Source: Bacteroides sp.
Lineage (GTDB): Bacteria; Bacteroidota; Bacteroidia; Bacteroidales; Muribaculaceae
Direction of reading: 5' to 3'
Assembly (NCBI GenBank): GCA_014802445.1
Contig: JAAVCF010000010.1
Span: 62,001-126,000, forward strand
DNA: 64,000 nt
A program made the translations under genes and the position numbers. Shown here piece by piece: positions 8,100-10,292 of this stretch. How positions within the stretch are numbered: the first letter of the stretch is position 1; the number at the start of each line of letters is the position of its first letter. The notes beneath the pieces are model-generated. The model made no database searches and was not told where the DNA came from. It saw only the letters and a list, made by a program, of their open reading frames with translations.

Positions 8100-8130
8100 T
8101 TTGTCGTTTGAAAGAAAATAGCTATTTTCG
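8100..8130 (+). promoter_or_regulatory. promoter for xerD-like/hpf operon
   Basis: TTTG at 8100-8103 and TATTTTCG at 8123-8130 (one mismatch to TAnnTTTG) are spaced by 19 nt and lie 30 nt before the recombinase start. Confidence 0.5.
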
Positions 8131-8160: not shown

Positions 8161-9075
8161 ATGAACATAACCGTCAGTAATTTTCTCCGTTACCTTGAGG
8201 CTGAGCTCAATATGTCGGCCAACACCGTTGCGGCTTACCGCCGTGACCTGCGTGACTGGGAGCACTGGGCCACTGACGGCGGCGCGCGCCCTCTTGACCC
8301 CGTGGACATGACCGCGGGCGACCTCCGCGCATGGCTCGGCCATGAGACGCGCCGGGGCCTCACGGGTGCCACCATCAAGCGAAAGGCATCGGCCCTGCGC
8401 AGCTTCTACCGCTATCTGCTGGAGCGCGGCGAGGTGAAGGTCAACATCGCCGAGAGGCTCGTCACCCCCAAGCAGCCCAAGCCGCTGCCCGTGTTTGTGA
8501 ATCCCGGCGAGATGGAAGCCCTGCTCACTACCGATGACCCCGCGGCGACCACCCCGTTCCTCTCGGCGCGTAACAGCCTCATCGTTGACATTCTCTACTC
8601 GGCCGGACTCCGCTGTCAGGAACTTATTGACCTGCGCGACTCATGGGCCGATACCGCCGCAGGCACCCTCCGGGTGCTCGGCAAGCGACGTAAGGAGCGC
8701 ATAGTGCCCGTGGGCAGAGCGCTTTGCGAAAGAATTGAGGACTACCGCGCCCTGCGCGATGCCGACCCCCTGACGCGCAGCGCCGCCGATTCTCCGCTTT
8801 TGGTGCGCCCTGACGGCGAACCGTTGGCCCGCAAAGATGTTTATAATATTGTGCACAGAATGATGGAGAGCGCAGGGGTTCACGCCTCACGGCTCAGCCC
8901 TCACGTTTTGCGTCATTCATGCGCCACCGATTTGCTCAACTCGGGTGCCGGCCTGGATTCGGTGAGAGAGCTGTTAGGCCATAAAAGCCTCGCCACCACT
9001 CAGATTTACACCCATTTGACCTACCGGGAACTGCAACATAATTACCAACTGGCACACCCCCGTGCCGCAAAATGA
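8161..9075 (+). CDS. Tyrosine recombinase, XerC/XerD family
   Basis: A 304-residue site-specific recombinase with an N-terminal SAM-like core-binding domain (FLRYLEAELNMSANTVAAYR) and a C-terminal catalytic domain. The active-site residues are present: Arg in YSAGLRCQELIDL (about residue 151), His-Leu-Arg in HVLRHSC (about 247-253), His in LGHKSLATTQ (about 274) and the nucleophile Tyr in IYTHL (about 283). The length fits XerC/D, which resolves chromosome dimers with FtsK. In Bacteroidales this gene commonly sits next to hpf, as here, so it is a housekeeping gene rather than an integrase. ATG 8161 is chosen over a TTG at 8146. Confidence 0.92.
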   Translation: MNITVSNFLRYLEAELNMSANTVAAYRRDLRDWEHWATDGGARPLDPVDMTAGDLRAWLGHETRRGLTGATIKRKASALRSFYRYLLERGEVKVNIAERLVTPKQPKPLPVFVNPGEMEALLTTDDPAATTPFLSARNSLIVDILYSAGLRCQELIDLRDSWADTAAGTLRVLGKRRKERIVPVGRALCERIEDYRALRDADPLTRSAADSPLLVRPDGEPLARKDVYNIVHRMMESAGVHASRLSPHVLRHSCATDLLNSGAGLDSVRELLGHKSLATTQIYTHLTYRELQHNYQLAHPRAAK

Positions 9076-9082
9076 AAGGAGG
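9075..9082 (+). promoter_or_regulatory. Strong Shine-Dalgarno sequence before hpf
   Basis: AAAGGAGG lies 8 nt upstream of the hpf ATG and overlaps the end of the recombinase gene. It is close to a perfect anti-16S match at ideal spacing. Other starts in the window are preceded by A-rich or unremarkable sequence, as expected in Bacteroidota, so this site stands out. Confidence 0.8.
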
Positions 9083-9090
9083 ACCCCACT

Positions 9091-9381
9091 ATGGATCTCA
9101 GAATCAACGCCATCCATTTTGATGCATCAGAAAAACTCGTGGCTTTCATCAACAAGAAAACCGACAAGCTTGAACACCGCAATCCTTCGATTGCCACCAT
9201 TGACGTCACCCTCAAGGTGGTGAAGCCTGAAACCTCGCTCAATAAGCAGGCCATCGTGGAGGTGACCGTGCCGCAGCATCCCGCCTTCGTGGCCGACAAG
9301 ACTGCCGACACCTTCGAGGAGGCTATCGACCTGGCTCTCGAAGCGCTTGACCGTCAGCTCGAAAAGGTGAAAAACAGATAA
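9091..9381 (+). CDS. hpf: Ribosome hibernation-promoting factor, short HPF/RaiA type
   Basis: A 96-residue HPF/YfiA-family protein that binds the decoding centre of the 30S subunit and inactivates ribosomes in stationary phase. The sequence starts MDLRINAIHFDASEKLVAFI and shows the beta-alpha-beta-beta-beta-alpha fold, with a C-terminal helix EAIDLALEALDRQLEKVKNR. It lacks the C-terminal dimerization domain of long HPF. It is translated from an unusually good ribosome-binding site 15 nt after the xerD stop and is followed by a terminator. In many Bacteroidales the cluster continues with tRNA genes and tuf; here it does not. Confidence 0.93.
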   Translation: MDLRINAIHFDASEKLVAFINKKTDKLEHRNPSIATIDVTLKVVKPETSLNKQAIVEVTVPQHPAFVADKTADTFEEAIDLALEALDRQLEKVKNR

Positions 9382-9422
9382 CGGGGTGAGTCATCATTCT
9401 GACACATTACCATCATAACAGG

Positions 9423-9458
9423 GGCGAGGAGTCATGCTGACTCCCCGCCTCCTTGTTT
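9423..9458 (+). terminator. Rho-independent terminator after hpf
   Basis: GGCGAGGAGTCA (9423-9434) pairs with TGACTCCCCGCC (9438-9449) with one mismatch and a 3-nt loop, followed by a T-rich tract. Confidence 0.8.
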
Positions 9459-9491
9459 GATTTTCTTTAACTGCTTAGATCATTCATTATC

Positions 9492-10292
9492 ATGCAATTA
9501 AAATCGCCGGCGGAAATTTCCGCCGCCGCCACAGCCGCCGGTTCGCGCAAGGCCGGCATGCTGCGCGCGTCAGCCGCGCGGCTCTTAGTGTCGTCAGCCC
9601 TGGCCGGGGCTTTCATTGCTTTCGGAGGAGTGTTGTCGCTCATCATCGGGCGTGGCTTTCCCGGGCTCGCCGAGGCCAATCCGGCGCTGCCCCGACTGCT
9701 CTCCGGAGCCGTGTTTCCCGTGGGGCTGATTCTCGTGGTGGTGCTCGGTGTGGAGCTTTTCACGGGCAACAATGCCCTGCTCATACCCGGCTACATGAGT
9801 CGCCGCCACACATTGAAGGATGTGGTGCTCAACTGGACCGTGGTGTATCTGGGCAACTTCATAGGGGCCGTGCTCTTCACGTGGCTCATGGTGTATGCCT
9901 GCGGGCTGACAGCCGTTGAGCCGTGGCATTCGGCCATCATCTCCATAGCTGAAGCGAAGGTGTCAATGAGTTGGCTCACAGTGTTTCTGCGCGGTGTGGG
10001 CGCCAACTGGTGCGTCTGTCTGGCGGTGTGGCTCGCCCTGTCGGGCCACAATCTGGTGGAGAAGATGGCGGGCTGCTGGGTGCCGGTGATGATGTTTGTG
10101 GCGCTCGGATATGAGCACTGCGTGGCCAACATGTTCTTTATCCCTCTGGGGATGATGGAGGGGGCTGACGTGGGTGTGGCTCAGGCTCTGACCGCCAATT
10201 TTATTCCCGCCACGCTCGGCAACATTGCCGGAGGAGCGCTGCTTGTGGGCACCATCCACACATGGCTCCACCGTCCCCACACTCCACTTTAA
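9492..10292 (+). CDS. Formate/nitrite transporter (FNT) family channel
   Basis: A 266-residue integral membrane protein with six predicted helices and FNT signatures: AFIAFGGVLSLIIGRGFP in helix 1, GVELFTGNN in the family's conserved loop, GNFIGAVLFTWLM, and GANWCVCLAVWLAL. FNT channels are pentamers that move formate, nitrite, hydrosulfide or lactate. The sequence does not decide the substrate, but formate from mixed-acid fermentation is a reasonable guess for a gut anaerobe. No pyruvate formate-lyase or nitrite reductase gene is adjacent. It is monocistronic between the hpf terminator and the NfeD promoter. Confidence 0.9.
   Translation: MQLKSPAEISAAATAAGSRKAGMLRASAARLLVSSALAGAFIAFGGVLSLIIGRGFPGLAEANPALPRLLSGAVFPVGLILVVVLGVELFTGNNALLIPGYMSRRHTLKDVVLNWTVVYLGNFIGAVLFTWLMVYACGLTAVEPWHSAIISIAEAKVSMSWLTVFLRGVGANWCVCLAVWLALSGHNLVEKMAGCWVPVMMFVALGYEHCVANMFFIPLGMMEGADVGVAQALTANFIPATLGNIAGGALLVGTIHTWLHRPHTPL

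What the first reader, a model, noticed from the sequence alone, without database searches (positions are those of the whole stretch)
9060..9381. Near-perfect Shine-Dalgarno sequence only in front of hpf
AAAGGAGG at 8 nt spacing precedes hpf, while the other starts I looked at lack such a motif. Bacteroidota ribosomes normally hide the anti-SD, with proteins bS21, bS18 and bS6 involved, and rare genes with strong SDs (rpsU is the known case) are autoregulated through this. A strong SD on a ribosome hibernation factor suggests its translation senses ribosomes lacking bS21 or with free anti-SD, linking hibernation to ribosome assembly state.
Basis: partly seen in the sequence, partly recalled or inferred. 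Interest (0 to 1): 0.68.

Follow-up and report, generated by a model that had tools for sequence, protein, structure and literature searches.

The report
Hairpin-plus-SD start site for hibernation factor
In gut Bacteroidales, whose ribosomes normally ignore Shine-Dalgarno signals, the ribosome-hibernation gene hpf is preceded by a strong, conserved Shine-Dalgarno sequence and a small conserved RNA hairpin at the end of the neighbouring gene xerC; both are mostly lost where hpf has moved away from xerC, which suggests a dedicated way of starting its translation.

Summary
The motif is real: GAAAGGAGG (9074-9082), 8 nt before the hpf ATG (9091), the strongest of 337 sampled starts in this genome. 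"Only hpf" holds locally; rplE and rplF in the same genome also carry SDs.

It is conserved in 57 of 68 other Bacteroidales, more often than in rpsR (17/29) or rpsU (8/30); xerC starts in the same loci have none (0/114).

(1) In Muribaculaceae the SD is present when hpf directly follows xerC (85/96) and absent when a gap separates them (0/14); 9 of those 14 have a promoter box before hpf, against 0/96. (2) A hairpin in the last xerC codons, about 20 nt before the hpf ATG, is kept by compensatory synonymous changes (87/87 Watson-Crick; shuffles at most 50) and mostly broken in gap genomes and outgroups. rpsU (bS21) usually lies just upstream of xerC.

Best reading: a hairpin+SD internal initiation site for hpf. 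Control by bS21-poor ribosomes is plausible but unproven.

The parts
8161..9075 (+). xerC (tyrosine recombinase), ends TGA at 9073-9075
   Evidence: TIGR02224 E 4e-86; ATG at 8161 read from the sequence
8123..8130 (+). weak candidate -7 promoter box TATTTTCG before xerC (one mismatch to TAnnTTTG)
   Evidence: pattern only; not tested
9051..9066 (+). hairpin GGCAC-ACCCCC-GUGCC in the last xerC codons; its core 4-bp stem (9052-9055 with 9062-9065) is the conserved one
   Evidence: covariation of the wobble pair in 87/87 linked Muribaculaceae loci and 145/157 Bacteroidia loci; also in the predicted fold
9074..9082 (+). Shine-Dalgarno sequence GAAAGGAGG (octamer 9075-9082)
   Evidence: strongest of 337 starts; conserved in Bacteroidales
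9091..9381 (+). hpf, short-type ribosome hibernation-promoting factor, 96 aa
   Evidence: PF02482 69 bits; TIGR00741 40.4 bits

Best explanation
The 3' end of xerC carries a composite translation-initiation module for hpf: a short hairpin ending about 20 nt (here 25 nt) before the AUG, an A-rich linker, and an SD of about 7-9 nt about 5 nt (here 8 nt) before the AUG. It lets 30S subunits start hpf inside an mRNA that begins upstream (probably at rpsU where rpsU is adjacent, probably at xerC in this window), independently of the SD-less start of xerC. Because replete Bacteroidia ribosomes hide the anti-SD, the module should work best with subunits whose 16S tail is free or can be pulled free, including subunits short of bS21; hpf output would then rise with that pool. 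Shown by sequence: the SD, its conservation, its tight spacing to the AUG, its specificity within the locus, the covarying hairpin, and loss of SD and decay of hairpin where hpf is separated from xerC. Inferred: that SD-anti-SD pairing occurs, that the hairpin aids initiation, and that bS21 status modulates it.
For: Strongest SD in the genome sample while SDs are generally depleted. Present in 85/96 linked Muribaculaceae and 57/68 other Bacteroidales; xerC starts 0/114, rpsU starts 6/65 in the same loci. Spacing to AUG sd 1.3 versus sd 11.7 to the xerC stop; several reading frames or after the stop. Absent in 0/14 gap loci, 9 of which have a TAnnTTTG box, against 0/96 linked. Hairpin wobble pair Watson-Crick 145/157 against shuffle mean 42, neighbouring control pairs at chance; full stem in only 3/13 gap loci, wobble pair in only 3/17 outgroup AHPR/K xerC genes. 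The AGGAGGU reporter, weaker than hpf by my calculation, responds to bS21 truncation (PMC9976891).
Against: No functional data. In Prevotella reporters SDs had little effect (PMC3155529). Extended SDs (< -13 kcal/mol) are said to be needed for bS21-dependent control; most hpf SDs are near -12. Some linked genomes (11/96 in the family, most class-level ones) keep xerC-hpf without an SD. The hairpin also occurs without the SD outside Bacteroidales, so the two need not act together. In 9/26 order-level linked loci a TAnnTTTG string lies at -64 to -80 inside xerC codons, so a local promoter cannot be excluded there.
Confidence: 0.5

Rival explanations
1. Translational coupling: ribosomes that finish xerC stay on the mRNA, and the SD holds the post-termination 30S near the hpf AUG for reinitiation. 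Terminating ribosomes may expose the anti-SD, as proposed for the prfB frameshift site.
For: The SD occurs only when the xerC stop and hpf start are close (85/96 versus 0/14). prfB SD-like frameshift sites are common in Bacteroidia (PMC8710568).
Against: Close junctions in this genome are not SD-enriched (5/138 versus mock 8/138) and Bacteroidetes as a group do not use SDs for reinitiation (PMC6728339). SD-to-stop distance is loose while SD-to-AUG is tight. Ribosomes ending xerC would melt the conserved hairpin.
Confidence: 0.27
2. One reading: the SD exists in order to sense ribosomes lacking bS21 or with a free anti-SD, tying hibernation to ribosome assembly.
For: SD strength is in a range that responded to bS21 truncation in F. 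johnsoniae; rpsU adjoins xerC-hpf in 24/28 order-level and 20/28 class-level loci.
Against: The SD is lost with a gap upstream of hpf, is kept when rpsU is elsewhere (42/49), and is shared with rplE, rplF and rpsR; published work ties bS21 control to extended SDs.
Confidence: 0.25
3. mRNA processing or stability: the hairpin marks or protects a 5' end made by cleavage of the longer mRNA upstream of hpf, and the SD serves the processed mRNA.
For: The hairpin is generic in sequence, fixed about 20 nt before the AUG and not needed when hpf has a gap upstream.
Against: No RNA-end data; a hairpin at this place is equally explained as a boundary of the initiation region.
Confidence: 0.13
4. Chance or protein-level constraint (the xerC tail KKGG).
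For: In most Muribaculaceae the SD is read in the xerC frame as KKGG (66 cases).
Against: The SD persists in other frames and after the xerC stop, in this window and in 13 order-level loci; synonymous covariation of the stem cannot come from protein constraint.
Confidence: 0.02

Closest known systems
rpsU extended SD and bS21 autoregulation in Flavobacterium johnsoniae (McNutt et al. 2023, PMC9976891)
   Same: A strong SD on one gene of the translation machinery in a bacterium that hides its anti-SD; in many Bacteroidia the same gene neighbourhood
   Different: Different gene (hpf), shorter SD (typically 8 bp, -12, against 9-13 bp), junction inside xerC, conserved hairpin upstream, and no shown dependence on bS21
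rpsR and other ribosomal-protein SDs in Bacteroidales (Jha et al. 2021 as cited in PMC9976891; rplE and rplF seen here)
   Same: Similar strength; promoter-distal genes of the translation machinery
   Different: hpf is not a ribosomal protein; its SD is more widely conserved than that of rpsR in my sample (57/68 versus 17/29); the covarying hairpin has only been examined at hpf
SD-assisted termination-reinitiation at overlapping genes (Huber et al. 2019, PMC6728339)
   Same: SD near the end of the upstream gene, start codon close to its stop
   Different: Bacteroidetes as a group do not use SDs there; here the SD position follows the AUG, not the stop, and a hairpin sits upstream

Membership tests
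SD-dependent translation start | Complementarity to the 16S tail at 4-11 nt from the start codon, beyond chance | tested here: met
   conserved spacing 4-11 nt, median 5. Own 16S 3' end not seen
SD-dependent translation start | Pairing is used in the cell (anti-SD covariation or mutation effect) | not testable with these tools
   No anti-SD variant among the genomes studied; needs an experiment
bS21 (rpsU-type) autoregulated mRNA | The gene encodes bS21 | tested here: not met
   The gene is hpf
bS21 (rpsU-type) autoregulated mRNA | Extended SD, below -13 kcal/mol | tested here: inconclusive
   Window -15.6, but most relatives about -12.2; my energies are not computed as in the paper
bS21 (rpsU-type) autoregulated mRNA | Translation rises when bS21 is depleted | not testable with these tools
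   Needs a depletion strain
Translational coupling by termination-reinitiation | Start of the downstream gene overlaps or lies close to the upstream stop | tested here: met
   15 nt in the window; -32 to +30 nt in most relatives
Translational coupling by termination-reinitiation | Downstream translation depends on upstream translation | not testable with these tools
   Needs an xerC early-stop construct
RNA family in Rfam | Match above gathering score | tested here: not met
   Only chance-level matches in 8700-9500

The most novel reading that the evidence does not exclude
Bacteroidales make hpf through a dedicated hairpin+SD entry site that selects ribosomes with an exposed anti-SD (bS21-poor or immature), so that shortage of bS21, encoded next door in most of the order, directly raises the hibernation factor.
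Probability: 0.25. Interest if true: 0.85.

Novelty: new variant of a known kind. Interest (0 to 1): 0.6.

Why it matters
Bacteroidia are the standard example of SD-less translation, with rpsU as the main studied exception. An order-wide SD on the hibernation factor, in the bS21 gene neighbourhood and combined with a compensated RNA hairpin hidden in the last codons of xerC, points to a second, testable use of the hidden anti-SD and a possible link between ribosome composition and hibernation in abundant gut bacteria.

Tried and rejected
Chance octamer: 3 in the window, 1.76 expected; the position carries the signal, not the word. General SD use at close gene junctions: not enriched in this genome. 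XerC KKGG tail as the cause: rejected, since frames vary and the SD also lies after the stop. Dependence on rpsU linkage: none seen (38/42 versus 42/49). XerD paralog as hairpin control: its tails mostly lack AHPRA, so gap loci and xerC genes from outside the class were used instead. Rfam: nothing meaningful. Thermodynamic folding of the region: not unusual (z 0.19), so the hairpin case rests on covariation. 16S 3' end in the own genome: not found. Jha et al. 2021 was not held; its content is taken from later papers. A reciprocal pattern between rpsU SD and hpf SD at class level: not exclusive. Promoter box as a marker outside Muribaculaceae: unreliable, because TAnnTTTG strings at -64 to -80 in 9/26 order-level linked loci look like xerC coding sequence.

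Full report
The observation. hpf starts at 9091 and is preceded by GAAAGGAGG at 9074-9082, with an 8 nt spacer. The word itself is expected about twice in the window by chance. To judge the position I called genes in the window and in 20 stretches of 20 kb from the same genome and computed pairing of the 22 nt before each ATG with the 16S tail GAUCACCUCCUUUCU. hpf is the strongest of 337 starts (-15.6 kcal/mol). SD-strength sites are otherwise rarer than in a mock window further upstream (8 versus 13 at <=-9; 18 versus 38 at <=-7). Two ribosomal protein genes outside the window, rplE and rplF, also have SDs, so 'only hpf' is a local statement. The anti-SD of this genome itself was not found.

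Conservation. The window belongs to Muribaculaceae by its nearest named relatives. Loci from the family, the order and the class were fetched. A strong SD (<=-9) stands before hpf in 85 of 110 Muribaculaceae loci (some are the same genome twice; 71 of 90 in the reduced set), in 23/28 and 34/40 other Bacteroidales loci, and in 10/28 class-level loci. In my order sample rpsR, the published Bacteroidales case, has it in 17/29 and rpsU in 8/30. In the linked family and order loci, xerC starts have it in 0/114 and rpsU starts in 6/65.

What the SD goes with. In Muribaculaceae the SD is present in 85/96 loci where the xerC stop lies within -60 to +30 nt of the hpf ATG, and in 0/14 where it does not (Fisher p 2e-11, not corrected for relatedness). 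Gap loci fall in at least three places on a XerC+HPF tree, one of them a clade of nine. A Bacteroidetes -7 box (TAnnTTTG) lies within 110 nt upstream of hpf in 9/14 gap loci and 0/96 linked loci of the family. In linked family and order loci the box is found before rpsU in 52/62 and before xerC in 15/114. At order level 9/26 linked loci have a box string before hpf, but at -64 to -80 inside xerC codons. So in Muribaculaceae the SD is found where hpf appears to be translated from an mRNA that starts further upstream. GGAGG-to-ATG spacing is tight (median 5, sd 1.3); GGAGG-to-xerC-stop is loose (sd 11.7). The SD is read in different xerC frames or lies after the stop, which excludes a peptide constraint, and it is kept whether or not rpsU is adjacent.

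A hairpin. The last xerC codons (Ala-His-Pro-Arg/Lys-Ala) form GCNC-loop-GNGC. Most of the pairing is given by the amino acids; the free pair, Ala third base with Arg third base, is Watson-Crick in 87/87 linked Muribaculaceae loci (shuffle mean 34, maximum 50) and in 145/157 Bacteroidia loci (mean 42, maximum 60), with A-U, C-G, U-A and G-C all common; Arg codons switch between CGN and AGR to keep it. Control pairs of neighbouring wobble sites are at chance, loop wobble sites vary, and the 3' end of the stem lies 15-28 nt (median 20) before the hpf ATG in nearly all. The full stem survives in only 3/13 gap loci, and the wobble pair is Watson-Crick in only 3/17 AHPR/K xerC genes outside the class. 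In this window it is GGCAC-ACCCCC-GUGCC at 9051-9066. Loci without an hpf SD mostly keep the hairpin (19/24 Watson-Crick).

Neighbourhood. rpsU (bS21) lies just upstream of xerC in 24/28 order-level and 20/28 class-level loci; in this genome it is on another contig. Adjacency does not prove co-transcription, and F. johnsoniae rpsU is reported to be transcribed alone (PMC9976891).

Mechanism. Published work: Bacteroidia hide the anti-SD in a bS21-bS18-bS6 pocket, bS21-deficient ribosomes favour strong SDs, a reporter with AGGAGGU rose more than 2-fold with truncated bS21, and extended SDs are said to be needed for rpsU autoregulation (PMC9976891). By one method the AGGAGGU reporter scores -10.7, typical hpf -12.2, the window -15.6 and an extended class-level rpsU SD -20.5. 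Modulation of hpf by bS21 status is therefore plausible. Reporter work in Prevotella found little SD effect and no inhibition by a hairpin at -21 (PMC3155529). My preferred reading is a hairpin+SD internal entry site for hpf. Coupling to xerC termination is the main rival; it is weakened by the lack of SD enrichment at close junctions here and in Bacteroidetes generally (PMC6728339), and by the loose SD-to-stop distance.

Limits. Everything functional is inferred. Energies depend on an assumed 16S tail and a 22 nt window. Gene starts in the background sample come from my own simple caller. Relatedness inflates counts. I found no report of an hpf SD or of this hairpin in the papers I could search, but most subscription papers and all preprints lie outside that library.

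Noticed in passing
L271 (G126:C7, rpsU): A Bacteroidales (by this collection's taxonomy) rpsU with an extended SD, AAAAGGAGGTGATTAGAC-ATG (-20.4), although published work reports that no Bacteroidales meets the strong-rpsU-SD criteria (PMC9976891).
   Followed up: no
L014, L030, L038, L042, L059 and others: Muribaculaceae loci that keep xerC directly before hpf, and the hairpin, but have lost the SD; a natural contrast for experiments.
   Followed up: partly
gap loci such as L048, L077, L103: Where hpf is separated from xerC, the XerC C-terminal tail is often longer and divergent.
   Followed up: partly
L310, 7923 and 9456 (G000:C15): rplE and rplF of this genome carry SDs (-13.8 and -11.1) in an otherwise SD-poor genome.
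   Followed up: partly
L032, L050, L061: Public contigs titled Staphylococcus, Paenibacillus and Pseudoflavonifractor carry Muribaculaceae-type xerC-hpf; probably mislabelled metagenome bins.
   Followed up: no
window 9492-10292: A formate/nitrite transporter gene (fnt family, TIGR00790) follows hpf here; no tRNA gene was found in the window.
   Followed up: no
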